From NCBI GenBank assembly GCA_947086895.1, contig CAMUAR010000014.1, positions 1 through 64,000 of the forward strand: a stretch of 64,000 bases of DNA, given 5' to 3'. The notes under the pieces were generated by a model. That model had not been told where the DNA came from. It did not search any database and worked only from the letters and a program-made list of their open reading frames with translations. This stretch comes from an uncultured Lachnospiraceae bacterium. GTDB taxonomy: Bacteria > Bacillota > Clostridia > Lachnospirales > Lachnospiraceae. Every line of letters begins with the position of its first letter. Position 1 is the stretch's first letter. The translations under genes and the position numbers were made by a program. This document shows positions 46,781-58,253 of this stretch, piece by piece.

Positions 46781-47178
46781 AAAAAGGATGGTCTTATTGT
46801 AACAGGATATAATCATTTCGTCCATGGTATGTTCTTTGCATTCTTTGTATTTTATTATAGTTGGTATGTAATTACCAAAAGAAAAAAAATAAAGGTTCTC
46901 ATTTCAGATTTACAGGAGAAAAATTTTAAGTTTGGAACAGATTTTCCAAATGTATCTGCAAAAATAAGAAAAATTTAAGTTATTTGGCTGGAGAGATATT
47001 CAAAGAGCTTTTCAAACAATTTAAGAATTATTGTATCATCAGGAAAAAGAGAAAATTGAAAGAATGTTCATAACCTTTTCCGTTTATAATAAATCAAAAA
47101 GAAGCTGCAAAAGAATTTGAAGAATGATTGAAAAAGAAAAGACAAAACATCACTAATAAGGCTTAGAAAGGAGATTTT
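46781..47178. other. Intergenic region upstream of the bile salt hydrolase gene
   Basis: No gene was found. An inverted repeat TTGGTA-N6-TACCAA (46861-46878) could be a regulator site. The ribosome site AAAGGAG is just before 47179. The rest is A-rich and featureless. Confidence 0.35.
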
Positions 47179-48153
47179 ATGTGTACAGCGGTGACCTATA
47201 AAACAAAAGATTTTTATTTTGGCAGAACATTAGATAACCCGTTTTCTTATCAGGAAGAAATTACGATTACGCCGCGCTGTTATCCGTTTCATTTTCGCAG
47301 GGCAGGGAAATTGGATCAGCATTATGCGATGATTGGAATGGCGTATGTAGTGGAGGATTATCCATTGTACTATGACGCGGTAAACGAAAAGGGGCTTGGG
47401 ATTGCTGGGCTGAATTTTGTCGGAAATGCAGTTTACAGGGAAGCAGAACCAAATAAAGATAATGTGGCACAGTTCGAATTGATTCCATGGCTGCTTGCGC
47501 AGTGCGCCTCGGTGGAAGGTGCAAGATTATTTTTGGAAAAGATCAACATTACAAACGATTCGTTCAATCCTTCTCTTCCGGCGGCGCAGCTGCACTGGAT
47601 TATTGCGGATTGCAACAGTTCTATTGTCGTGGAATCCGTTCAGGACGGCATTAAAATTTACGATAATCCAGCTGGAATTTTAACAAACAATCCGCTGTTT
47701 TATGAACAGATGTTTCATTTAAACAATTATATGATGCTGTCGCCAAAGAAAACGCAGAATCTGTTTTCCGACAAATTAAATCTTTATTCGTACTGCCATG
47801 GAATGGGAGCGATTGGGCTTCCGGGAGATCTCTCGTCACAGTCCCGTTTTGTGCGCGCAGCTTTTGTAAAATTGAATTCTGTTTCCGGCGATTCCGAGGA
47901 AGAAAGTGTGAGTCAGTTTTTTCATATATTAAATTCGGTGGATCAGCCAAGAGGGTGCTGCGATCTGGGAGACGGCGAGTATGAAACTACCATTTACACT
48001 TCGTGCTGCAATGCGCAGAAAGGAATTTATTATTATACTACCTATGGAAACCATCAAATTACGGCGGTAAGTATGTTTAAGGAGAAACTAGAAGGAAGGA
48101 AACTGATAAAATATCCGCTTGTCACAGGGGAGAAAATTTTTTGTCAGAATTAA
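47179..48153 (+). CDS. bsh: Choloylglycine (bile salt) hydrolase
   Basis: A 324-aa Ntn-hydrolase that removes glycine or taurine from conjugated bile acids; penicillin V acylases are the close relatives. Met1 must be removed to free the nucleophile Cys2 (MCTAV). Other catalytic positions are visible: R16 and D19 (GRTLD), Asn of GIAGLNF (about 79), Asn of GILTNNP (about 169) and Arg of SQSRFVRA (about 222). There is no signal peptide, as usual for the family. Ribosome site AAAGGAG. It indicates a gut habitat. It lies 119 bp upstream of the split spoIIID gene. Confidence 0.95.
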   Translation: MCTAVTYKTKDFYFGRTLDNPFSYQEEITITPRCYPFHFRRAGKLDQHYAMIGMAYVVEDYPLYYDAVNEKGLGIAGLNFVGNAVYREAEPNKDNVAQFELIPWLLAQCASVEGARLFLEKINITNDSFNPSLPAAQLHWIIADCNSSIVVESVQDGIKIYDNPAGILTNNPLFYEQMFHLNNYMMLSPKKTQNLFSDKLNLYSYCHGMGAIGLPGDLSSQSRFVRAAFVKLNSVSGDSEEESVSQFFHILNSVDQPRGCCDLGDGEYETTIYTSCCNAQKGIYYYTTYGNHQITAVSMFKEKLEGRKLIKYPLVTGEKIFCQN

Positions 48154-48211
48154 AAAGGGATTCGCTGCTGCCCGCTTTTTTTGATTTTTTGCGGTATACT
48201 GTGTTATTTTA

Positions 48212-48241
48212 GGTATGTACCACGAACTTCCTGCATAAAGT
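48212..48241 (+). promoter_or_regulatory. Possible sigma-E promoter of spoIIID
   Basis: GGTATGT (48212-48218), 15 nt, CATAAAGT (48234-48241) resembles the mother-cell sigma-E pattern (ATATT and CATACAAT). spoIIID is under sigma-E control in Bacillus and Clostridium. The match is partial. Confidence 0.35.
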
Positions 48242-48272
48242 GTATAAACAAGTATGTTAGGGTGGCATTCCC

Positions 48273-48470
48273 ATGAAAACCAGTTTAAGGCAGCAGCATA
48301 CAGCAGCCAATTATTTAACATCGGCAAAGCACCGCCAGATTGAGGAGCGGGCAGCTATGGTAGCACAATTTATTGTGGAAAATAACGCGACAGTACGGCA
48401 GGCGGCAAAACAATTTGGAATCAGTAAAAGTACGGTACATAAAGATGTAACAAAATCGAATGAATTTTAA
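48273..48470 (+). CDS. spoIIID: SpoIIID, N-terminal half (split gene)
   Basis: Mother-cell transcription regulator of sporulation, 5' part. The frame gives 65 aa, of which the first 54 codons up to 48434 are genuine spoIIID. These include IEERAAMVAQFIVENNATVR and the helix-turn-helix AAKQFGISKSTVHKD. Intact proteins continue with a C-terminal basic region needed for DNA binding. Here, at the core GTACATAA (48435-48442), the sequence diverges into KSNEF and a stop. The missing half is at 54748-54915, and fusion at the core restores one 109-codon frame. The N-terminus is longer than in Bacillus; AGGGTGG lies 7 nt before ATG 48273. Unless the element is excised, only a truncated, probably inactive protein is made. 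Confidence 0.93.
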   Translation: MKTSLRQQHTAANYLTSAKHRQIEERAAMVAQFIVENNATVRQAAKQFGISKSTVHKDVTKSNEF

Positions 48471-48501
48471 CAATAATTAAATAAAATAATAATATAACAT
48501 T

Positions 48502-48540
48502 AGAAAGTATTATAGTAAAACTTTCTGATGCTTTTTTATT
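48502..48540 (+). terminator. Terminator after the spoIIID N-terminal half
   Basis: AGAAAGT (48502-48508) pairs with ACTTTCT (48520-48526), followed by GATGCTTTTTTATTTT. It would end the transcript of the truncated spoIIID inside the element. Confidence 0.6.
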
Positions 48541-48827
48541 TTAGGAATGTTTTTATGAAAAACTCTTTAAATAAGATACATATTTGTAAAACAGAGGATT
48601 TCTGGACAATGGTTGGGTTTGATGCGAAAGATTTTGCCAAGCCAGTCTGCTTCACGCTGTAATTTTAGATAACAGTGCATGAAATAAATATTGTAATACA
48701 AACGACGATTTGATATACTTAAAAAAACTTAAGTGTTTCGACAATGAAATTGACGATAGCAGTAAAAATTCATTGCAGCATGAGTATAATAAAAAAAGTT
48801 GCCAATTTATGGGAAATAAGGAGAAAT
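48541..48827 (+). other. Element left region before the kinase gene
   Basis: It contains a 35-codon frame, 48555-48662 (MKNSLNKIHICKTEDFW...), with a weak AGGA site 8 nt upstream, possible as a micropeptide but unsupported. The ribosome site of the kinase is AAGGAG (about 48817-48822). A TATAAT at 48784-48789 has no good -35. Confidence 0.35.
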
Positions 48828-51401
48828 ATGAAAAAAGAGTCAACAAAAAAGAAGATGGATAGAAGTATTTTTTTGCCTATTTCTATTGTTGTTATATTTT
48901 GTATATTGGGAACTGTTGTATTTTTGGTATCGAGTAAAATTTCAGCGAAGATGTCCGCGTCAGCGATTCAAAATTTAAGTGAGAGCTTGGATTTGATAGA
49001 GTGTACAATTGAGGCGATTATGAATAGAGAAGCGGAGTTTCAACAGTCGATGGCGCATGAGATTGCGATGGCGCAGGATCCGGAAGCATACGTCCGCACT
49101 TACCGCAACAATCAGACAATCGTGAAAGTATCTTTGATCTGCGCTGGGAAAACGGAAGGGGTTTCCAATGCAGGAAACTTATTTTCGGAGGACGAACTTG
49201 ATTTTTCCAACGGGGGAAGCGTGGGAGGAATGCCAGTTTCCAAGTCCTATATAAACTATATGGGAACTTGGGCATATACTATAAAGTGTCCTGTTGTAAG
49301 GGAGGGAGAGGAAATAGCATTCCTCTATGTTGAATATACTTACGACTCTCTTGACCGGTCGCTTCCCGATGGGTTTTACAACAAAAAAGCGATGCTTTAT
49401 ATTATGGATGCAGAGAGCGAGCGGTTTGTGTTAAAACCGAAGGGAATGGGCGAGCGCAATGCAGGGCATCTGAATATGGAAGATTTTTTCCGCGCAAATG
49501 ATATTCATGAGCCAGAGATTTGGACACAAGTTTCTGAGAACGTGAAGAACAAGAGAAATATTATGTTTTATCATGATATTCGGGGAAAAAGTTCGCTGAT
49601 TTATATATGGTCTGTAAATGACGGAACTCTTTTTTTAATTGGATATGTGCCAGTGGATGCGATTCAACAAGAAGGAAATACGGTAAATCAAAATATCTTT
49701 ATTGTTGTCACAGCGATGTTGATTGCGTTTTTCCTGTGCTGCCTATTATATTATTTTACGCAGAGACAGCAGATAAAAATTAGAAAAGAGCAGGAAGAGG
49801 AGCGCGAAATACACAATAAACAGTTGAGGGAAGCACTGCAGGCGGCGCAGATTGCAAGCAATTCTAAGACAATGTTTCTCTCCAACATGTCGCACGATAT
49901 CCGCACGCCAATGAACGCGGTAATTGGATTTACCACTCTGCTTGCGAAAGATGCGGAAAATCCCCAAAAGGTCAGGGAATACACAAAAAAGATTATGGCG
50001 TCGGGACAGCATCTGCTCAGTCTGATCAATGATATTTTGGATGTTTCCAAGATTGAGAGCGGAAAGGTTGTGCTTACGATAGAAGAGTTTACATTAAACG
50101 ATCTCGTATCTTCTGTAGATGCAATTATCCGACCGATGGCAAATGCCAGAAGTCAGAAATTTTATGTTGAAGTAACAGGAATAAGGCATGAATATTTGAT
50201 GGGAGATGAGACAAGAATCAACCAGATTTTGATTAATCTTCTCTCAAATGCTGTGAAATATACGCCGGAGGGCGGCAATATCTGGTTCCGTATTATCGGC
50301 ATGAAACAGCATTCGCCGCAGTATGAGCATATTCGAATTGAAGTACAGGATGATGGCTATGGCATGACGCAGGAATATTTAAAGGTTATATTTGATGCGT
50401 TTACCAGAGCGGAGAATAGTACTACAAATAAAGTACAGGGTACAGGGCTTGGCATGGCGATCACCAAAAATATTGTAAAACTTATGGGTGGTACAATTGA
50501 TGTATCGAGCGAGGTAAATAAGGGTACGCTTTTTCGGGTAGAATTGGAACTTCGCATACCGGAGGAGCAGGCGATCAAGCGATTGTGGGAAGAGAACGGA
50601 ATTTCACGGATTTTGGCGATCGACAGCAATGAAGTTATCTGTGAAAATATTTGTATGCTTATGAACGATACAGGGGTAGTTACCGATGTTGTTTCAAGCG
50701 CAGACAACGCGATTCAGATATTAAACAATAAGACAGAAACCAACGATTATCAGATACTTTTGATTGACTGGGATATTGTGGAGAAAGAAGGAATTCAAAA
50801 GATAAAAGAAATTCGGGAGATCTTACCAGAAACGGCATTGATATTATTTTTGGCAGATTGCAATACGGCAGGCATGGAGGAGACGCTTTTGATAAAAAAT
50901 ACAAAAGTCCTTACAAAGCCGTTTTTTGTAAGCGCCCTTCAGGAAAAAATACTGGAGAGCAAAACCGAACAAAGTATAGCAAGTTCTGCGATTGCGGATG
51001 CCGACAATTTAAAAGGGCTTCATTTTCTTGTGGCGGAGGACAATGATATCAATGCGGAAATACTGGAAGAAATCTTGTCCATGGAAGAAGCGGACTGCGA
51101 GATTGTGGAAAATGGCAAGCTGGCGGTAGAACGGTTTGAAGCCGCCGAAGAAAAAGAATTTGACGCTATTTTAATGGATGTTCAGATGCCGGTGATGAAC
51201 GGATATGACGCGACAAGAAAGATCAGAGCGCTAAGCCGCAAAGACGCTATGGAGATACCGATTATTGCTATGACAGCAAACGCTTTTGCGGAAGATGAGA
51301 AGGACGCGCTTGACGCCGGAATGAATGTCCATCTGGCAAAGCCAATCAATATTGAAATGCTGAAAAAAGTAATCCATCAGTATGTTTATAAAGATAAGTG
51401 A
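48828..51401 (+). CDS. Hybrid sensor histidine kinase with two receiver domains (element cargo)
   Basis: An 857-aa membrane protein. TM1 is at about residues 13-34, then an extracytoplasmic sensor domain of about 250 aa (Cache-like) and TM2 at about 287-309. HisKA has phospho-acceptor MSHDIRTPMNAVIGF (His about 355), and HATPase has NQILINLLSNAVKY and GTGLGMAIT. A first, degenerate-looking receiver region (about 594-710) and a complete C-terminal receiver (EDNDIN, Asp about 784 in ILMDVQMPVMNG, KPIN) follow. The start ATG 48828 has AAGGAG. No HPt or output domain is present, so it must signal to other proteins. It is 60 bp upstream of the solute-binding lipoprotein gene. Confidence 0.93.
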   Translation: MKKESTKKKMDRSIFLPISIVVIFCILGTVVFLVSSKISAKMSASAIQNLSESLDLIECTIEAIMNREAEFQQSMAHEIAMAQDPEAYVRTYRNNQTIVKVSLICAGKTEGVSNAGNLFSEDELDFSNGGSVGGMPVSKSYINYMGTWAYTIKCPVVREGEEIAFLYVEYTYDSLDRSLPDGFYNKKAMLYIMDAESERFVLKPKGMGERNAGHLNMEDFFRANDIHEPEIWTQVSENVKNKRNIMFYHDIRGKSSLIYIWSVNDGTLFLIGYVPVDAIQQEGNTVNQNIFIVVTAMLIAFFLCCLLYYFTQRQQIKIRKEQEEEREIHNKQLREALQAAQIASNSKTMFLSNMSHDIRTPMNAVIGFTTLLAKDAENPQKVREYTKKIMASGQHLLSLINDILDVSKIESGKVVLTIEEFTLNDLVSSVDAIIRPMANARSQKFYVEVTGIRHEYLMGDETRINQILINLLSNAVKYTPEGGNIWFRIIGMKQHSPQYEHIRIEVQDDGYGMTQEYLKVIFDAFTRAENSTTNKVQGTGLGMAITKNIVKLMGGTIDVSSEVNKGTLFRVELELRIPEEQAIKRLWEENGISRILAIDSNEVICENICMLMNDTGVVTDVVSSADNAIQILNNKTETNDYQILLIDWDIVEKEGIQKIKEIREILPETALILFLADCNTAGMEETLLIKNTKVLTKPFFVSALQEKILESKTEQSIASSAIADADNLKGLHFLVAEDNDINAEILEEILSMEEADCEIVENGKLAVERFEAAEEKEFDAILMDVQMPVMNGYDATRKIRALSRKDAMEIPIIAMTANAFAEDEKDALDAGMNVHLAKPINIEMLKKVIHQYVYKDK

Positions 51402-51461
51402 AAGGAGCTATTATTTCAAAAAATAGAGGAAAGTTTTATTGAAAGCAAAGAGGAAAGATTT

Positions 51462-52769
51462 ATGAAAAAAAGAATAAAAAAAATAACAGCACTTTGTCTT
51501 GCATGTTTCACTGCGCTGTCGCTGACCGCCTGTACAAACAATAGACCAAAAGACAGTGATGTGATGATTTTTGAGAAGGAAAACAAGCAGATTGTGACTC
51601 TTTTCAGTCCGATGGAAAAAACAAAGCCAGACGCTGATAATGTGGCGAGAAGCGCGTCGGAAAAAACGGTTGCCATGGCAGAAGAAAAGTTGGGAGTAAC
51701 TGTAAATTACATTACGTACACAGCGGAGAATTATCAGGATAAAACTTATGATGAGGTAGCGCTTGAGAGAGCGCGCAATAGTCTGGATGATTTATACCTG
51801 CTGAACCCTGATATCCTTCAGGCATTGGGCTCAGAAAATAAACTGATGGATTTGTCCAGCCTTGACAGTGCAAAAAATCTGCGCGATGTGGTAAAAATGG
51901 CAAATACCGTGGATGGGAAGCTGTTGGGGATTCCCCAGGAAGTTGTCGCTTACGGGCTGTTTGTCAATAAGGATATGTTTGATCAGTATAATTTAAAACT
52001 GCCGGAAACACCGGAGGATTTTTTGGAATGCTGTAAGGTATTTCAGGAAAATGGAATTGAGACGCCGGTTGGGGCAAACCGCTGGTGGCTGGAGACATTT
52101 GTTTTTGCGCAGGCTTATGCAGATCTGTATAACGGCGGAAATCTTGAGGCGGAAATTGCAGCGCTCAACAGCGGAGAAAAAAAGTACAGCGATTATATGC
52201 GCCCCGGCTTTGAGTTTCTTCAAAAGATGATGGACAACGGATATATTGACGCGAAAAAAGCATACATAAGCGAAGCGATCGAAGGAGAAGGTTCCGATTT
52301 TCTGGCACAGAAAACACCGATGGTTATGGCATACTGGAGTGCGGCAAATGCGGAAACTGCTTATGGAAGGCCAGATTTTAATATGCAGGTTATCGGTTTT
52401 CCAAGCAGCCATGGACAGATGCCGGTTATATCGATCACTGGGATTTCTATTGCAAAAAATGCAGAACATGCAGAAGATGCGGTAAATACGCTTAATATTA
52501 TGGTTTCTGATGAAGCACTTCAAATTTATGCGGAGACCAACAAAGTTATCTCACCTTCCAAAAATGTTCAAGTAGAGTGCATTCCAGCATTAAAACCTCT
52601 GAATGACAAGATCAACGATAATATCTTTGTCCTTGCCACAAATGCAAGTATGAAGGTGGAACAGTGGGGAAACACTTGTATTATTGTGCGGGAGCTATTG
52701 AACGGGGCTTCTGTTGATGATTGTATGGAAGCGTTTGATAAGCTTCAGGAAGAATCGTTAAAGAAATAA
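51462..52769 (+). CDS. Extracellular solute-binding lipoprotein (element cargo)
   Basis: A 435-aa ABC-type binding protein. The signal peptide ends in lipobox LTAC (Cys24). The mature part shows family 1 features: ALERARNSLDDLYLLNPDIL, GIPQEVVAYGLFVNKDMFDQY, and PETPEDFLECCKVF. No permease or ATPase gene is nearby. A binding protein next to a kinase with an extracytoplasmic sensor suggests a ligand co-receptor for that kinase rather than a transporter part; this is inference. The ribosome site is AGAGGAAAG. A perfect palindromic terminator follows. Confidence 0.92.
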   Translation: MKKRIKKITALCLACFTALSLTACTNNRPKDSDVMIFEKENKQIVTLFSPMEKTKPDADNVARSASEKTVAMAEEKLGVTVNYITYTAENYQDKTYDEVALERARNSLDDLYLLNPDILQALGSENKLMDLSSLDSAKNLRDVVKMANTVDGKLLGIPQEVVAYGLFVNKDMFDQYNLKLPETPEDFLECCKVFQENGIETPVGANRWWLETFVFAQAYADLYNGGNLEAEIAALNSGEKKYSDYMRPGFEFLQKMMDNGYIDAKKAYISEAIEGEGSDFLAQKTPMVMAYWSAANAETAYGRPDFNMQVIGFPSSHGQMPVISITGISIAKNAEHAEDAVNTLNIMVSDEALQIYAETNKVISPSKNVQVECIPALKPLNDKINDNIFVLATNASMKVEQWGNTCIIVRELLNGASVDDCMEAFDKLQEESLKK

Positions 52770-52790
52770 ATCAAAATAAAGATTAAAAAA

Positions 52791-52825
52791 AATACTGCAA
52801 AACAGCTGTTTTGCAGTATTTTTTA
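52791..52825 (+). terminator. Perfect 30-bp palindrome terminator
   Basis: Bases 52791-52820 form a complete palindrome centred on AGCT, with arms starting AATACTGCAA, followed by TTTTT. It separates the kinase/lipoprotein unit from the recombinase unit. Confidence 0.85.
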
Positions 52826-53009
52826 TGCGCAGACCCGTGCAACAGAAAAAGAAGGACTATTTTTTTGTGTTTGTTCATAATTATGGACAAAGAGTTTGTG
52901 TAAAGAAGATCATAAAATTAAGTGATTTTAAACTTTACAGAACAAAGATTTTCGCATTGATTGTTTATAGTTTCAAAGTAATGTAATAAAAGACGGAGGT
53001 GGTTTTGCT

Positions 53010-53165
53010 ATCGCTCGTAAAGTTAAGTTAAATTTTCATTTTCATAATCCAAACACAACAAAACAAACTGCCAATTACATACTGAAAGTATTTTTTGAAG
53101 CAAATCAAGAAAAATTGGAAAAGGTATTGCAGAAGGAAATAAAAATGGAAAAACAGATTGTTTGA
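53010..53165 (+). CDS. 51-codon small protein before the recombinase, apparent ATC start
   Basis: The frame reads (I/M)ARKVKLNFHFHNPNTTKQT ... ANYILKVFFEANQEKLEKVL ... and ends 1 nt before the next frame opens, 54 nt before the recombinase ATG. It has protein-like composition and a good ribosome site, GGAGG (52995-52999), but no ATG, GTG or TTG. The codon where the start is expected is ATC (53010), 10 nt after GGAGG. It is therefore either a rare non-canonical start or a lost start codon. Small proteins beside serine recombinases in excising elements can be recombination directionality factors, so this is a candidate for that role. Confidence 0.5.
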   Translation: MARKVKLNFHFHNPNTTKQTANYILKVFFEANQEKLEKVLQKEIKMEKQIV

Positions 53166-53219
53166 TTGTATCGTTCCGAAGCGACAAAAAAGAACGAATT
53201 GCAGAGAAAGGTTATTTTT

Positions 53220-54755
53220 ATGAATATAGCTGCGTACTGCCGTGTTTCTACAGATAAATCAGACCAGCTGAACAGCCTGGAAGCTCAAAAAAAATTTTTT
53301 GCCGAGTACACGCAAAAAAACGGTCATAACCTTGTAAGATTATATGCAGACGAGGGTATTTCAGGCACAAAAATTAAAAACCGCAAAGAATTTTTAGGTC
53401 TTATGCGCGATGCACAGCAAGGCTTGTTTGATATGGTAGTTGTGAAGGATATTTCCCGTTTTGCCCGCAATACAGTGGACCTTCTGCAAAGTATCCGCGC
53501 TCTGAAAACATTGGGTATTGAAACTACGTTTTTAACAGCGAATATGACTGTTTTAGGGCAGTCAGAATTTGTTTTGACAATTTTCGGGGCATTGGCTCAG
53601 GAGGAGAGTGCAAACACGTCCAAGCGGGTAAAGTTTGGAAAGAAAATAAACGCTGAAAAGGGAAGGGTTCCCAATATCGTTTACGGCTATAATAAAACAA
53701 TAGGAGATTATTTTCATCTTACAATCAACAAAGAAGAGGCAGAGATTGTCCGTCAGATTTACGACTGGTATCTAAACGGGGGATGCGGAGCTGCCAAGAT
53801 CGCAGGTATGCTGAATGACCGGGGGCTGAGAACAAAGCGAAATTGCAGCTGGAGCCAAAATGCGGTGTGCCGAATTCTCACAAATGAACTTTATACCGGA
53901 AAAATTATTAACGGCAAACAGGAAGTCTCAGATTTTCTCACAGGGACAAGAGTGCAGAAGAACAAATCAGAATGGTTTGTCACAGAACGCCCGGAGCTGA
54001 AAATTATTGAGTCCGAACAGTTTGATAAAGCTCAGGAAATTCTTCACAAGCGCCATAGTTCATTTTGTATAAAACATGAAAGGCAAAGCAACAAGCATTT
54101 GTTTAGCACTCTTATAAAATGTAAAGAATGCGGCTGGTCCTTTCGGCGCACGGTTCGCACTTACAAAAATACATACATTCGCTGGGTGTGTTCCGGGCAT
54201 AACGGCAAAGGCGCAGACAGCTGCAAAAATACGGTGACTGTGGGGGAGGATGAGCTGATTCAAGCACTGGAAGAATACTTTGCAAAACTCTTAAAAGAAA
54301 AGAAAAATATTATTCGTTATATAGTGGAAAAATTTATAAAAATCTACAATTCAAAGAATGACAATAAGAATTATGAAAAAGAACTGAACGCCCAGCTTGC
54401 CAAGATAAAAAACATCCGTCAAAAATATATCAGTATGTATATGGACGATTTTATCAGCCGGGAAGAATTAAATCAAAAAATAAGCAGTATAAAGCTGGAA
54501 ATGGAGCGTTTGGAAAATGAACAGAAAATAGTGCAGTACAATTTAGATAAAGGCGGGCGGTTGGAGGAAATTATCAAAGAAACATTTCAAAGTGTGGAGG
54601 ATATTACGCTTGTACGAGACATGACAAACGCACAGCTGAAAAAAATAATCCAGAAAATTGAAGTAGATCAAGAGGGAAATATCGATATTTATTTGCGTTT
54701 GTTTGAAGATCTGGGCTTAGAGGAAAACGTTCTAGTTTGTGACAACAGTACATAA
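53220..54755 (+). CDS. Large serine recombinase of the spoIIID element
   Basis: A 511-aa site-specific recombinase. The resolvase domain has catalytic Ser10 in YCRVSTDKSDQ, then DEGISGTKIKNR, VVVKDISRFARN and an ALAQEESANTSKRVKFG helix. A recombinase domain follows (GYNKT ... IVRQIYDWYLNGGCGAAKIA), then a zinc ribbon (CKECGWSF ... CSGH ... C) and a coiled-coil C-terminus (KLEMERLENEQKI). This is the SpoIVCA/large serine integrase architecture. The start is at ATG 53220, with GAAAGG. Its stop codon lies inside the right core (54753-54755), so excision moves the gene onto the circle whole. Role: excision of the element during sporulation, inferred from context. Confidence 0.95.
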   Translation: MNIAAYCRVSTDKSDQLNSLEAQKKFFAEYTQKNGHNLVRLYADEGISGTKIKNRKEFLGLMRDAQQGLFDMVVVKDISRFARNTVDLLQSIRALKTLGIETTFLTANMTVLGQSEFVLTIFGALAQEESANTSKRVKFGKKINAEKGRVPNIVYGYNKTIGDYFHLTINKEEAEIVRQIYDWYLNGGCGAAKIAGMLNDRGLRTKRNCSWSQNAVCRILTNELYTGKIINGKQEVSDFLTGTRVQKNKSEWFVTERPELKIIESEQFDKAQEILHKRHSSFCIKHERQSNKHLFSTLIKCKECGWSFRRTVRTYKNTYIRWVCSGHNGKGADSCKNTVTVGEDELIQALEEYFAKLLKEKKNIIRYIVEKFIKIYNSKNDNKNYEKELNAQLAKIKNIRQKYISMYMDDFISREELNQKISSIKLEMERLENEQKIVQYNLDKGGRLEEIIKETFQSVEDITLVRDMTNAQLKKIIQKIEVDQEGNIDIYLRLFEDLGLEENVLVCDNST

Positions 54756-54915
54756 GGACATTACAGATCGTTTGGTTCCAGTCAACCCGTCGCTGGCAGA
54801 ACAGACGCGCCAAGTGCTGAATCAGAACAAGTCCGAGCGGCATATCCGAGGCGGTATGGCGACAAAGAAAATGTACGATACGAAAAAAAAGCGCGTCAAT
54901 GCAAAAGGGATATAA
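54748..54915 (+). CDS. spoIIID: SpoIIID, C-terminal half (split gene)
   Basis: From the right core the frame reads VHKDITDRLVPVNPSLAEQT, then RQVLNQNKSERHIRGGMATKK and a lysine-rich tail, ending at TAA 54913-54915 (55 codons). NKSERHIRGG-ATK is the conserved C-terminal signature of SpoIIID. There is no proper start: a GTG at 54739 is in frame but lacks a ribosome site. The reading frame is uninterrupted, which argues that it is kept under selection and used after excision. Joined to codons 1-54 at the left, it gives a complete protein. Confidence 0.93.
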   Translation, partial: VHKDITDRLVPVNPSLAEQTRQVLNQNKSERHIRGGMATKKMYDTKKKRVNAKGI

Positions 54916-55020
54916 GTTTGAAATGAGTTTATAAAAATATTATTTGCCTTTGCTATATTAGATGGTATACAATCTGCTTAATGGCATTCGTGCCAAATTT
55001 ACACGTGGATGAGGTGTACT

Positions 55021-55596
55021 ATGGTTTGTAAGGCCTGCGGGCGGATCATTGCAAATGAAAAAGCAAATTTTTGTGAGTATTGCGGCACTTCCGTAGATGG
55101 GAGAGAAGAGGGGTATTCTGGCGGCAGCCAAAGTTATAGTTACGATAAGGGTCAAAAGTATGGCAGCGGTGACGGTTATAACAACCAAGGTTATAGTCGC
55201 GGTGATGGTTTTCATTATGAGAATCAGAGCTATAACGGCAGCAACAGCAGCGCTCAAAGTATCCAAGGCGGCACGGGGCTGATTGATATTCTTGGCGGCA
55301 CAGCTGGCACGGCGGAGGCGGAACCGTCCATGTCCTTTGTTCACTGGATTGTGATTTTGCTGCTGCCATACATTCCAATGATCGGCAGTTTTGCTTATAT
55401 TGTTTTGCTGCTTGTGTGGGCATTTGGCAAGACAGCTACTACAACAAGAAAGAATTGGGCGAGAGCGAGCCTGCTGCTCCTTTTGATTGGAATGATTCTT
55501 ATGGTTACAATGATGCCGTCGCTTTTTGCTATGCTCTCAGAAGGAGATGTGTCGGGAGTACTGGATTCGCTGCTTGGCGCAAATCCGGCAAGATAA
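55021..55596 (+). CDS. Zinc-ribbon membrane protein with Gly/Ser/Tyr-rich linker
   Basis: A 191-aa protein. The N-terminal zinc ribbon CKACGRII ... FCEYCG is followed by a low-complexity linker (SGGSQSYSYDKGQKYGSG, YNNQGYSRGDGF, YNGSNSS). Two membrane segments come next (about residues 105-132 and 144-166) with a short C-terminus. The start at ATG 55021 has GAGGTG; the in-frame start at 55009 is not needed. This layout is frequent among uncharacterised Lachnospiraceae proteins. It lies 105 bp after spoIIID. Confidence 0.82.
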   Translation: MVCKACGRIIANEKANFCEYCGTSVDGREEGYSGGSQSYSYDKGQKYGSGDGYNNQGYSRGDGFHYENQSYNGSNSSAQSIQGGTGLIDILGGTAGTAEAEPSMSFVHWIVILLLPYIPMIGSFAYIVLLLVWAFGKTATTTRKNWARASLLLLLIGMILMVTMMPSLFAMLSEGDVSGVLDSLLGANPAR

Positions 55597-55916
55597 GATA
55601 TGACATGGCGAATACAAGATTTTCTATGGCTTTTTTAACGGCTTGATGCGAAAATGTTTCGTAGAAGGGAATATATTAAAAAATCCTTTATCTATAATTG
55701 TTACACAGCATCTTTCGATGAATTATGGAGGAAAGGACAAACATTAAGCGAAACATTTCGCTATTGTTTGCAGGTTGAAGTATGGGAAGAACTGTACCGC
55801 AGGATAACGTGTGTTAGACGGATATGAAACTTATAACAAACAGTACAAAGTTTGTAAATTTGTTAAGGTTCGCAGAAGTCTAAGCTGTGGTATACAAGAA
55901 AGGAGACTATATAATA
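55597..55916. other. Region upstream of the alpha-xylosidase gene with a palindrome
   Basis: The palindrome AGCGAAACATTTCGCT (55747-55762) and the related CGAAA-ATG-TTTCG (55649-55661) are candidate regulator sites for the glycosidase gene. No gene was found. The ribosome site AAGGAG precedes 55917. Confidence 0.4.
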
Positions 55917-58253
55917 ATGAAATTTAGCAATGGTTGCTGGCTTCAAAAAGAAGGTACCGAGTGTTTTTCACCAGCGCAGATTTACTTTACAAAAGTTGAG
56001 GACAACCTGGTGACAATGTGTGCGCCGACACACCATATCAACCATCGGGGGGATACGCTCGGCGGGGTTAATTTGACGATCAAGGTCAGCGCGCCAGCTC
56101 CAGAAGTGCTTCGCGTTCAGGCATATCATTATGCCGGGGTGCAGAAAAAAGCACCGTCTTTTGAGCTTGAGCTTGATGAGACAGCCAAAGTTGAAGTCGA
56201 GGAGAATGAGTGGGTAATCAATATAAAAAGCGGTTCCCTTCGCATGGAAATCAACAAGGGAAACGGCAGCTTTGCTTTCTTCCGCGGCAGCGAAAAGCTT
56301 ACTGGCAGCGGATGGAGAGATCTCGCTTATATGAAGACGGACTGGAAGGGACTCGCTTACGATGACGGACTTCCGCATAATACATATATGAGAGAGCAGC
56401 TTTCTCTCGGCGTCGGCGAGTATATTTACGGTATGGGCGAGCGTTTTACGCCGTTTATTAAGAATGGACAGTCCGTTGATATCTGGAATGCGGACGGTGG
56501 TACTTCAACAGAGCAGTCGTACAAAAATATTCCATTCTATATTTCAAATCGCGGTTACGGCGTGTTTGTCAATAATCCTGGAAAAGTAAGCTTTGAAGTT
56601 GGAACAGAGATGGTGACAAAGGTTGAGTTTTCCGTGCCTGGTGAATCCATTGACTATTTCTTCTTCCATGGTCCGACCATGAAGGAAGTGCTGTCGCGCT
56701 ATACTGATTTAACTGGAAAACCGTCGCTTCCGGCACCATGGACATTCGGATTGTGGCTGTCTACTTCGTTTACTACAAACTATGATGAAGATACTGTAAA
56801 CGGTTTTGTAGATGGAATGTTTGAGCGCGATATTCCTCTTGCAGTATTTCACTTTGACTGCTTCTGGATGAAGGAGTTTTCCTGGTCTGATTTTATCTGG
56901 GATTCCAGAGTGTTCCCAGACCCGGAAGGCATGCTTGCGAGACTGAAAGCAAAGGGCTTAAAGATCTGCGTCTGGATTAACAGCTATATTGGTCAGGAAT
57001 CCGCATTGTTTGAAGAAGGTGTGGAAAAAGGCTACTTTATAAAACGTCCAAACGGCGATGTATGGCAGTGGGATATGTGGCAGCCAGGTATGGCGATCGT
57101 CGATTTTACAAATCCAGAAGCGTGCGAGTGGTATGCAGGCAAGCTGGAAAAACTGCTGGATATGGGTGTTGACTGTTTTAAAACCGATTTTGGTGAGAGA
57201 ATTCCGACCGAGGCGGTTTACTACAACGGTGCTGACCCGGAAAAGATGCATAACTACTATACTTATTTGTATAACAAAACCGTTTATGATCTGCTTGTCC
57301 GCAAAAAGGGCAAGGAGGAAGCAGTTCTGTTTGCGCGTTCCGCGACGGCAGGCGGTCAAAAATTCCCAGTACATTGGGGCGGGGATTGCTGGTCTGACTA
57401 CGAGTCGATGGAGGAGAGCCTGCGAGGCGGTCTGTCGCTTACCATGTCCGGTTTTGGATACTGGAGCCATGATATCGGCGGGTTTGAAAATACTTCAACA
57501 GCGGATGTGTACAAGCGCTGGTGTGCGTTTGGGCTTTTGTCCTCCCACTCCAGACTGCACGGAAGTACTTCCTACCGCGTGCCGTGGGCTTATGATGAAG
57601 AGGCTGTTGATGTTGTACGGTTCTTTACAAAGCTGAAAGCAAAGTTGATGCCGTACTTGTATCGCAATGCAGTTGAAACATCAAAGACAGGTGTTCCGAT
57701 GATGCGCAGCATGGTTCTTGAATTTACGGAAGATCAGAACTGTGCATATTTGGATAAGCAGTATATGTATGGAGATTCCCTGCTTGTCGCACCAATCTTT
57801 AATGATAAGAGTATGGCAAATTATTATCTGCCGGAGGGACGCTGGACGAATTTCTTTACCGGTGAGGTGAAGGAAGGCGGCAGATGGTATAAAGAGGAAC
57901 ACAGTTATTTGAGTATTCCGCTGATGGTAAGACCAAATAGTATCATAGCTGTCGGCAAGGATTGCGGTCCAGTTTACGACTATGTTGATGATGTGACGTT
58001 TATGGCTTATGAACTGGAAGATGGCAGCACTGTTTCCACGGAGGTTTATAACGGCTCAGCAGAGAAGAAAGCTTCGATCTCCATCACAAAAGAATCAGCG
58101 CGTGTCACAATGAAAGTTGAGTCCGAGAAGGCTTATAAGGTAGTTCTTGTAAATGTCAAAGCTTCTGGCGTGGAAGGGGCAGAATTTACAATCGAAGGAA
58201 ATAACACAGTGATCACGGCAAATGGGAATAAGGAAATTTGCTGTACACTGTAA
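55917..58253 (+). CDS. yicI: GH31 alpha-xylosidase, YicI type
   Basis: A 778-aa cytoplasmic glycosidase that releases alpha-xylose from xyloglucan-type oligosaccharides. It follows E. coli YicI closely from memory: WNADGGTSTEQSYKNIPFYI, WTFGLWLSTSFTTNYDE, FHFDCFWMKEF. The nucleophile Asp is in CFKTDFGERIPTE (about 424) and the acid/base Asp in HWGGDCWSDYESM (about 490), 66 residues apart as in YicI. The start at ATG 55917 has AAGGAG. Possible operators lie upstream. Xyloglucan use fits a plant-polysaccharide diet in the gut. Confidence 0.95.
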   Translation: MKFSNGCWLQKEGTECFSPAQIYFTKVEDNLVTMCAPTHHINHRGDTLGGVNLTIKVSAPAPEVLRVQAYHYAGVQKKAPSFELELDETAKVEVEENEWVINIKSGSLRMEINKGNGSFAFFRGSEKLTGSGWRDLAYMKTDWKGLAYDDGLPHNTYMREQLSLGVGEYIYGMGERFTPFIKNGQSVDIWNADGGTSTEQSYKNIPFYISNRGYGVFVNNPGKVSFEVGTEMVTKVEFSVPGESIDYFFFHGPTMKEVLSRYTDLTGKPSLPAPWTFGLWLSTSFTTNYDEDTVNGFVDGMFERDIPLAVFHFDCFWMKEFSWSDFIWDSRVFPDPEGMLARLKAKGLKICVWINSYIGQESALFEEGVEKGYFIKRPNGDVWQWDMWQPGMAIVDFTNPEACEWYAGKLEKLLDMGVDCFKTDFGERIPTEAVYYNGADPEKMHNYYTYLYNKTVYDLLVRKKGKEEAVLFARSATAGGQKFPVHWGGDCWSDYESMEESLRGGLSLTMSGFGYWSHDIGGFENTSTADVYKRWCAFGLLSSHSRLHGSTSYRVPWAYDEEAVDVVRFFTKLKAKLMPYLYRNAVETSKTGVPMMRSMVLEFTEDQNCAYLDKQYMYGDSLLVAPIFNDKSMANYYLPEGRWTNFFTGEVKEGGRWYKEEHSYLSIPLMVRPNSIIAVGKDCGPVYDYVDDVTFMAYELEDGSTVSTEVYNGSAEKKASISITKESARVTMKVESEKAYKVVLVNVKASGVEGAEFTIEGNNTVITANGNKEICCTL

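What the first reader, a model, noticed from the sequence alone, without database searches (positions are those of the whole stretch)
48273..54915. spoIIID is split by an excisable-looking 6.3 kb element (a 'skin' element in a new gene)
Seen: the SpoIIID N-terminal half ends at core GTACATAA (48435), and its missing C-terminal half starts at the same core at 54748. Joining the two at the core gives one open frame of 109 codons with the full conserved sequence. A large serine recombinase lies at the right end, and its stop codon is inside the core. Known: sigK in B. subtilis and C. difficile is interrupted by skin elements excised in the mother cell by a serine recombinase, and other sporulation genes (spsM, spoVFB) are similarly split. 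I do not know of a described case in spoIIID. Inference: excision is a developmental switch that turns on SpoIIID only in the mother cell, leaving the germline intact in the spore.
Basis: partly seen in the sequence, partly recalled or inferred. Interest (0 to 1): 0.97.

Follow-up and report, generated by a model that had tools for sequence, protein, structure and literature searches.

The report
Mobile DNA splits a sporulation gene
A relative of common gut bacteria carries its sporulation regulator gene spoIIID in two pieces separated by a 6.3-kb DNA element that is predicted to cut itself out during spore formation, which would rejoin the gene; the same gene is split in dozens of other, mostly gut, bacteria, so this is likely a widespread DNA-based developmental switch.

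Summary
Confirmed and extended. spoIIID is split at codons 55/56 by a 6,313-bp element (core GTACATAA at 48435 and 54748). The joined halves form an open frame that passes the curated SpoIIID cut-off; the genome search found no other spoIIID; a same-genus relative has the collinear uninterrupted gene. The element ends in a large serine recombinase (LSR), preceded by a small conserved protein (candidate excision factor).

This is not one case. Of 247 family genomes with a spoIIID match, 20 have both halves and no intact copy. Of the 80 closest recombinase relatives in named genomes, 74 lie directly against a SpoIIID C-half. Ten of ten chosen isolates have two halves and no intact gene. Near-identical recombinases lie in very different spoIIID genes, so the elements move horizontally, with spoIIID as attachment site. 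attP is a strong inverted repeat centred on CA. Five genomes carry a scar: no related recombinase, gene restored by a duplicated 5' half.

Mother-cell excision is inferred, not seen; it rests on a conserved CATA-type promoter before the candidate factor and on the constraint on both halves. Eight paper searches (open-licence library, no preprints) showed no report of a split spoIIID.

The parts
48233..48245 (+). predicted sigma-E-type -10 (GCATAAAGTGTA) upstream of the spoIIID N-half
   Evidence: Sequence; the same GCATAAAGTGTATAAACAAG stretch lies upstream of the intact same-genus gene L006; [CT]ATA-N14..17-CATA found in 40 of 66 spoIIID upstream regions against a shuffled mean of 1.4
48273..48470 (+). 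spoIIID N-terminal half including the HTH (65-codon truncated ORF; gene-derived part 48273-48442)
   Evidence: PF12116 63.9 bits
48398..48480 (+). attL; core GTACATAA at 48435-48442; right arm is half of the attP inverted repeat
48744..51401 (+). cargo: hybrid histidine kinase (HisKA, HATPase_c, two Response_reg stretches)
51462..52769 (+). cargo: extracellular solute-binding protein (SBP_bac_8)
52854..52892 (+). predicted mother-cell-type promoter block GGACTATTTT...TTCATAATTATGGACAAAG upstream of the candidate excision-factor gene
   Evidence: only forward-strand match of GGACTATTT-N8..16-TCATA in the 64 kb; same block upstream of the homologous ORF in other elements
53010..53165 (+). candidate recombination directionality factor, about 51 aa; no in-frame ATG/GTG/TTG near the conserved start, ATC at 53010 after GGAGGTGG
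   Evidence: homologues in 80 of 119 sources examined; start codons
53166..54755 (+). large serine recombinase (mechanical ORF start 53166; ATG at 53220); stop codon lies in the right core
   Evidence: Pfam domains; PHROG integrase E 1.1e-115; 42-73% identical to 13 recombinases of other spoIIID elements
54708..54790 (+). attR; core GTACATAA at 54748-54755; left arm is the other half of attP
54748..54915 (+). spoIIID C-terminal half
   Evidence: PF12116 71.1 bits

Best explanation
The mother-cell sporulation regulator gene spoIIID is cut in two between codons 55 and 56 by a 6,313-bp element that carries a large serine recombinase and is predicted to be excised in the mother cell, which would rejoin the gene and switch SpoIIID on. 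Shown: the split, the in-frame join, no other copy found, the LSR with an inverted-repeat attP centred on the CA of CAT, recurrence of the same insertion in many genomes recorded as Lachnospiraceae and Oscillospiraceae, and horizontal movement of the recombinase. Inferred: sigma-E transcribes the 5' half of spoIIID and, from a CATA-type promoter, a small directionality factor; the factor turns the recombinase from integration to excision; attL and attR recombine at CA to give intact spoIIID plus a circle. The forespore would keep the element, so it is inherited. The conserved GGACAA just downstream of the -10 of the factor's promoter resembles a SpoIIID box (consensus recalled), so restored SpoIIID may act back on that promoter; this last step is speculation.
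For: No other spoIIID in the genome. Collinear empty site in L006: 1 aa difference in 36 N-half codons and 2 in 43 C-half codons while synonymous sites are near saturation (pS 0.76 and 0.65). Joined proteins of nine further loci score 125.8-140.7 bits on PF12116; the four intact genes of the genus score 126.0-129.6 and the best family ones, a cut list, 137-147.5. In 397 family genomes 247 match (241 over the cut-off); 28 have only half-length best hits: 20 with both halves (12 on one contig, 8 on two), 7 with one half, 1 a contig break. One of the 12, G236, is a single-contig genome. Of the 80 closest recombinase loci, 74 have the C-half within about 310 bp. Ten of ten chosen isolate genomes: two halves, no intact copy. 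attP inverted repeat 17.4 of 28 at one centre, shuffled best 9.2; attB 8.2, within its shuffles; window 18 of 28. 47 of 85 C-halves have no ATG/GTG/TTG. Upstream of the candidate factor: TCATA in 62 of 76 (shuffled mean 7.7), CTAT-N14..16-CATA in 33 of 76 (shuffled 0.1; pattern chosen after viewing the sequences). Five genomes with an attL scar and no related recombinase have a restored gene. A sigK-like gene (295.4 bits, just under the 298.65 cut-off) and other sigma genes are present.
Against: No excision product or sporulation phenotype was seen; everything on timing and cell type is inferred. The -35 of the factor's promoter (CTATTT) departs from the one at spoIIID: the spoIIID-type pattern is met in only 11 of 76 factor upstreams, and the strict block in 24 of 76. 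The small protein is only a candidate: it is absent from two of the 11 same-contig elements (G060, G273) and in the window lacks a standard start codon. G175 shows no related recombinase in about 10.7 kb before its C-half; G351, G357 and G098 show none in the little DNA held, and the G357 C-half lacks the usual HKD start. 38 of 85 C-halves do have a possible start codon. Horizontal movement shows mobility, not developmental control. In the genus the split is in 2 of 6 genomes (window and, from its C-half, G002).
Confidence: 0.74

Rival explanations
1. The element is an ordinary integrative element that uses spoIIID as attachment site and excises at random or for its own transfer; the gene is restored in a fraction of cells, without developmental timing.
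For: Horizontal movement: recombinases 99.8% identical (L068, L128) lie in C-halves that differ by 31%; Mantel r between recombinase and C-half distance only 0.18. Cargo is variable, with plasmid replication, mobilisation and defence families among those listed.
Against: The conserved CATA-type promoter block upstream of the candidate excision factor is not a vegetative -10; the target is a mother-cell gene needed in the cell whose DNA is discarded, as in the known skin-like cases.
Confidence: 0.15
2. The insertion simply inactivates spoIIID; these lineages have lost or weakened sporulation and the halves are relics.
For: No excision seen; gut Firmicutes are known to lose sporulation (recalled). 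C. difficile spoIIID mutants are less impaired in sporulation than sigE or sigK mutants (PMC5025042, passages). G357's C-half may be decayed.
Against: Joined halves are in frame in the twelve loci parsed of 14 tried, and the ten scored (window and nine others) score like intact genes; window halves show strong constraint. Of 15 split genomes searched, 13 have a one-frame sigK-like gene (5 over the curated cut-off) and two have sigK in two pieces (only G226 read further). Five genomes with an attL scar but no related recombinase restored the gene.
Confidence: 0.09
3. The two halves are made as separate proteins that work together without excision.
For: The N-half keeps the HTH; 38 of 85 C-half frames have a possible start codon, some overlapping the recombinase end.
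Against: 47 of 85 C-half frames have no ATG/GTG/TTG before the His codon; the N-half tail differs between elements.
Confidence: 0.01
4. Assembly or binning artefact.
For: The window genome is in 138 contigs; some split genomes have halves on two contigs.
Against: Twelve same-contig cases, one in a single-contig genome (G236); isolate assemblies with contigs over 5 Mb (L104, L129) show it too.
Confidence: 0.01

Closest known systems
skin element of Clostridioides difficile (sigK; LSR CD1231 + RDF CD1234) (PMC5025042, abstract and passages seen)
   Same: LSR-bearing element splits a mother-cell regulator gene; excision rejoins it; small RDF with a sigma-E-type promoter
   Different: Target is spoIIID, one step earlier in the cascade; in C. 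difficile excision itself is under sigma-E and SpoIIID, which cannot hold before spoIIID is rejoined. Described as prophage-like; relation of the two RDFs not tested.
gin element in gerE of Bacillus cereus ATCC10987 (PMC5595907, passages seen)
   Same: Non-phage element in a small mother-cell transcription-factor gene; 9-bp core; small RDF-like protein (GirX, 42 aa)
   Different: gin is 28.6 kb with three serine recombinases; the window has one. Three other genomes here (G081, G137, G176) do have three tandem recombinases next to the SpoIIID C-half.
yin element in yabG of Clostridium botulinum V73 (PMC10747680, passages seen)
   Same: LSR with the same three Pfam domains; excision restores a sporulation gene; 14-bp repeats
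   Different: Described there as a prophage and unique; ours is a recurrent, horizontally moving family with another target.
SP-beta in spsM, vfbin in spoVFB, vrin in spoVR (PMC4191935, passages seen)
   Same: Split mother-cell genes; sprB has a perfect sigma-E/K -10 and an imperfect -35, as the block here does
   Different: Prophage or elements with phage-related genes; other targets.
cassette chromosome recombinases CcrB/CcrC and XisF (NCBIfam models)
   Same: Window recombinase matches them over most of its length
   Different: All scores far below the curated cut-offs (142.4 of 900; 127.2 of 900; 122.3 of 375), so not a member.

Membership tests
sporulation gene-intervening (skin-like) elements | interrupts a sporulation gene whose halves join in frame to a conserved protein | tested here: met
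sporulation gene-intervening (skin-like) elements | no intact second copy of the gene | tested here: met
   (96.4% complete genome); 10 of 10 chosen isolates
sporulation gene-intervening (skin-like) elements | element encodes a site-specific recombinase | tested here: met
sporulation gene-intervening (skin-like) elements | short direct repeat cores in att sites | tested here: met
   8 bp in the window; 2-9 bp in 25 loci with both sites
sporulation gene-intervening (skin-like) elements | recombination directionality factor encoded in the element | tested here: inconclusive
   conserved small ORF in 80 of 119 sources and 9 of 11 same-contig elements; function untested
sporulation gene-intervening (skin-like) elements | recombinase or RDF under a mother-cell sigma factor | tested here: inconclusive
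   CATA-type promoter block by sequence only
sporulation gene-intervening (skin-like) elements | excision during sporulation in the mother cell | not testable with these tools
   needs cultures
sigK skin element | located in sigK | tested here: not met
   the best sigK match of the window genome is one open frame on another contig
prophage-like intervening element | phage structural genes in the element | tested here: not met
   window element only: kinase, binding protein, small ORF, recombinase. For the other elements inconclusive: the PHROG tally shows 25 of 118 families, mostly replication and regulation, one named tail protein
large serine recombinase | Resolvase + Recombinase + zinc ribbon domains; attP with inverted-repeat arms | tested here: met
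   inverted repeat centred on the CA common to 25 cores; the crossover itself was not tested
gin-type element | three serine recombinase genes | tested here: not met
   one in the window; three in tandem in G081, G137 and G176

The most novel reading that the evidence does not exclude
spoIIID is the attachment site of a large, horizontally spreading family of elements in gut Lachnospiraceae and Oscillospiraceae. With a dedicated recombinase and an excision factor driven by a mother-cell sigma factor, they turn the regulator just below sigma-E into a one-way DNA switch. Elements with three, only distantly related, recombinases converge on nearly the same codons; in some species spoIIID and sigK are both split, giving a two-step cascade of DNA excisions; and restored SpoIIID shuts off the excision factor.
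Probability: 0.5. Interest if true: 0.95.

Novelty: new variant of a known kind. Interest (0 to 1): 0.9.

Why it matters
The gene-intervening elements I found in print are cases in sigK, gerE, spoVFB, spsM, spoVR and yabG. Here the split gene is spoIIID, the regulator that licenses skin excision in B. subtilis and C. difficile, and the split recurs across many genera through horizontal transfer. If excision is developmental, DNA rearrangement is a routine layer of sporulation control in gut bacteria, whose spores carry them between hosts. It might also explain why spoIIID looks missing or broken in some of them. Cultured isolates with the split make it testable at once.

Tried and rejected
tRNA search of the window and Rfam search of 47000-56000 found nothing. 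Mantel test for vertical co-inheritance: weak (r 0.18, 7 of 999 permutations as high), so old vertical splitting does not explain most cases. The first dN/dS script had a frame slip and is discarded; one search replaces it. The first start-codon count (43 of 71 without) mis-parsed some loci; one search replaces it, and itself missed the C-halves of L156, L157 and L166 that one search shows. G120 looked split but is a contig break inside the gene. G187, G091 and G053 looked like excised-plus-integrated pairs; in G187 and G091 the two copies are too different, and G053 looks like strain mixture, so none is evidence of excision. A scan of viral contigs gave 7 recombinase relatives, whose sites were not studied. 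Sporulation phenotypes of split isolates were sought and not found (listings only). I ran no structure prediction and no protein-database search.

The ten isolates were picked from the strain-named records among the 80; Christensenella L115, whose recombinase is not next to spoIIID, was not among them. Shuffles were dinucleotide-preserving and mononucleotide.
Full report
OBSERVATION. The core GTACATAA is at 48435 and 54748; the element between them is 6,313 bp. The 5' part of spoIIID ends at V55 and the 3' part starts at H56; joined they read as a 109-codon SpoIIID that passes the TIGR02844 equivalog cut-off (112.6 against 111.5 bits) and scores 125.3 bits on PF12116, close to the intact genes of the genus (126.0-129.6 bits). 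The search of the whole genome (138 contigs, 96.4% complete) finds only these two pieces.

EMPTY SITE. Of five other genomes in the genus, four have an intact single gene. L006 (G005) aligns with the window on both sides of the insertion: window 48204-48445 and 54745-54973 map to adjoining positions 1367-1610 and 1597-1807, and downstream sequence follows. The fifth, G002 (67% complete), shows only a C-half preceded by an attP-like arm, so it appears split too. Against L006 the window's N-half differs at 1 of 36 and the C-half at 2 of 43 residues although synonymous differences are near saturation. Part of that time the gene may have been intact.

THE ELEMENT. Cargo in the window is a hybrid histidine kinase and a solute-binding protein. 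At the right end lie a small ORF (about 51 aa) and the LSR, whose stop codon TAA is formed by the core; in 67 of 85 loci the recombinase ends at this same offset. In 25 loci with both att sites, attP (left arm from attR, right arm from attL) is an inverted repeat: mean 17.4 complementary positions of 28 at a single centre, best value in 200 shuffles 9.2; attB reaches 8.2, within its shuffles. The centre is the CA of the His codon; CA is all that the shortest core shares, as expected for the 2-bp crossover of an LSR (mechanism recalled). The window scores 18 of 28.

RECURRENCE. Among 397 genomes of the family, 247 match PF12116, 241 over its cut-off. I call the family Lachnospiraceae because G033 is Blautia sp. 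An81: L067 and L148 share identical DNA. Twenty-eight have only half-length best hits. Looked at one by one: 12, the window's among them, have both halves in order on one contig, with elements of 3.5 to 75 kb; 8 have both halves on two contigs; 7 show one half (of these G357 may be decayed); 1 (G120) is a contig break. A recombinase clearly homologous to the window's lies at the right end in 16 genomes (counting the window; partial in G128 and G362). Three others (G081, G137, G176) instead have three tandem serine recombinases, only distantly similar; in G137, where both halves are seen, the split is about two codons further on. In the rest none was seen in the DNA held.

NAMED RELATIVES. Scanning named genomes with the 14-recombinase alignment A1 gave 80 loci. 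In 74 of 80 a SpoIIID C-half lies within about 310 bp of the recombinase end; exceptions are L115 and L116 (none near), L142 (contig end), L117 and L131 (2.3 kb away), L120 (7.2 kb). In 17 of the 80 an N-half is also seen upstream within the flank. Record titles include Blautia, Schaedlerella, Sporofaciens, Agathobaculum, Flavonifractor, Pseudoflavonifractor, Anaerotignum and unnamed Lachnospiraceae and Oscillospiraceae; most sources look like guts, some are other or unstated. All ten isolate genomes that I chose have exactly two half matches and no intact gene, nine of them with both halves on one contig.

MOBILITY. Recombinases L068 and L128 differ by 0.2% but their C-halves by 31%; L145 and L143 by 2.5% and 43%. 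Recombinase and C-half distances correlate weakly (Mantel r 0.18, 7 of 999 permutations at least as high, n = 85). In 11 same-contig elements only the recombinase is common to all; the small ORF is in 9 of 11. Among 67 other cargo proteins, the listed families include RepA_N, Mob_Pre, DnaC-like loaders, AbiH, RloB, McrBC, a methylase and metabolic enzymes; only 25 of 71 Pfam and 25 of 118 PHROG families are listed. The elements therefore travel between species, and spoIIID is their target.

WHY THE SPLIT GENE IS LIKELY STILL USED. (i) The twelve joined proteins that could be parsed (of 14 tried) are in frame, and the nine of them scored, plus the window, score like intact genes. (ii) 47 of 85 C-half frames have no ATG, GTG or TTG between the previous stop and the His codon; 38 do. 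(iii) Of 29 genomes with an intact gene and a second match, five (L227-L231) keep the N-half with an attL-type tail, have no recombinase related to the window's, and carry 4.0 to 7.2 kb downstream a complete spoIIID whose 120-200 bp upstream of the join duplicate the N-half and its upstream region. Recombination between an integrated and an excised chromosome would give this; so would an element that brought its own 5' half. Either way the gene was restored where this recombinase is gone. (iv) A sigK-like gene (295.4 bits against a cut-off of 298.65) and further sigma genes are present in the window genome.

HOW EXCISION IS LIKELY TIMED. spoIIID upstream regions carry a [CT]ATA-N14..17-CATA promoter in 40 of 66 cases (shuffled mean 1.4). 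Upstream of the small ORF that pattern is met in only 11 of 76, but TCATA occurs in 62 of 76 (shuffled 7.7), CTAT-N14..16-CATA in 33 of 76 (shuffled 0.1) and the strict block in 24 of 76 (shuffled 0.0); these patterns were chosen after viewing the sequences. The consensus of the 62 is GgaCTAttTT.aga....tTtTCATAG.attGgaaAAag. The window has this block at 52854. A perfect sigma-E/K -10 with an imperfect -35 is also what was reported for sprB of SP-beta (PMC4191935, passages). So mother-cell sigma control of the excision factor is predicted; sigma-E and sigma-K cannot be told apart by this. GGACAA occurs in 36 of 76 (shuffled 2.3); I recall GGACAAG as a SpoIIID site, hence the feedback idea, untested. 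In C. difficile skin excision is under sigma-E and SpoIIID (PMC5025042); an element in spoIIID cannot wait for SpoIIID, so it would have to act on sigma-E alone.

SERIAL SWITCHES. In G226 sigK is also split, by about 20 kb with no detected relative of the window's recombinase; G350 shows two sigK pieces on two contigs. If sigK excision there needs SpoIIID, as in the known systems, the two excisions would run in series.

LITERATURE. Eight searches aimed at this (one search listed 20 of 283 papers) showed no report of a split spoIIID; two more sought phenotypes. I saw passages, not whole texts, of PMC5595907, PMC10747680, PMC5025042, PMC6957869, PMC12888040, PMC517825, PMC4191935 and PMC3789829; the passages shown do not mention it (of the 129 occurrences of spoIIID in PMC5025042 I saw only some). 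PMC12888040 notes unspecified differences in spoIIID between two Anaerostipes hadrus strains, which may be worth a look. The library holds open-licence papers only and no preprints, so an unseen report is possible.

VERDICT. A skin-like element in a new gene, and a member of a widespread mobile family aimed at that gene. Structure, recurrence and mobility are shown; mother-cell excision is inferred.

Noticed in passing
L227-L231 (G377, G304, G225, G312, G116): Scar state: N-half with attL-type tail, cargo without a recombinase related to the window's, then a complete spoIIID with a duplicated 5' half 4.0-7.2 kb downstream. G027 and G041 look similar but less clear.
   Followed up: partly
L088, L090, L100 (G081, G137, G176): Three tandem serine recombinases, only distantly similar to the window's, end at a SpoIIID C-half split about two codons further on: a second element type converging on the same spot.
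   Followed up: partly
L244-L245 (G226); G350 contigs C19 and C68: sigK is in two pieces too in genomes whose spoIIID is split.
   Followed up: partly
L112, L113, L118, L119, L123, L125, L134, L136, L137, L152, L071, L074-L077: The recombinase stop codon is lent by host spoIIID (CATAA); in the modelled circle the frame runs on for 14 or more residues in these 15 of 21 loci, so the free form may make a longer recombinase. The window shows no extension.
   Followed up: partly
window 53010; also L123, L124, L129, L134, L126: The candidate excision-factor ORF has no standard start codon just before its conserved start; the window, L123, L124, L129 and L134 share GGAGGTGGTTT followed by TATC, perhaps an ATC start. 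The DNA of L126 was not viewed.
   Followed up: no
L160 (Roseburia hominis MAG S12_Bin1): Recombinase and SpoIIID C-half appear to share one open frame without a stop.
   Followed up: no
L115, L116: Close recombinase relatives not next to spoIIID, so other attachment sites seem to exist.
   Followed up: partly
L086 (G128, near the N-half): A 712-aa ORF distantly similar to the recombinase lies at the left end of this element, besides the usual one at the right end.
   Followed up: no
L237, L238 (G187): A C-half with the usual recombinase on one contig and a quite different intact spoIIID on another: paralogue or contamination.
   Followed up: no
window 47179-48153: Choloylglycine hydrolase family protein directly upstream of spoIIID.
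   Followed up: no
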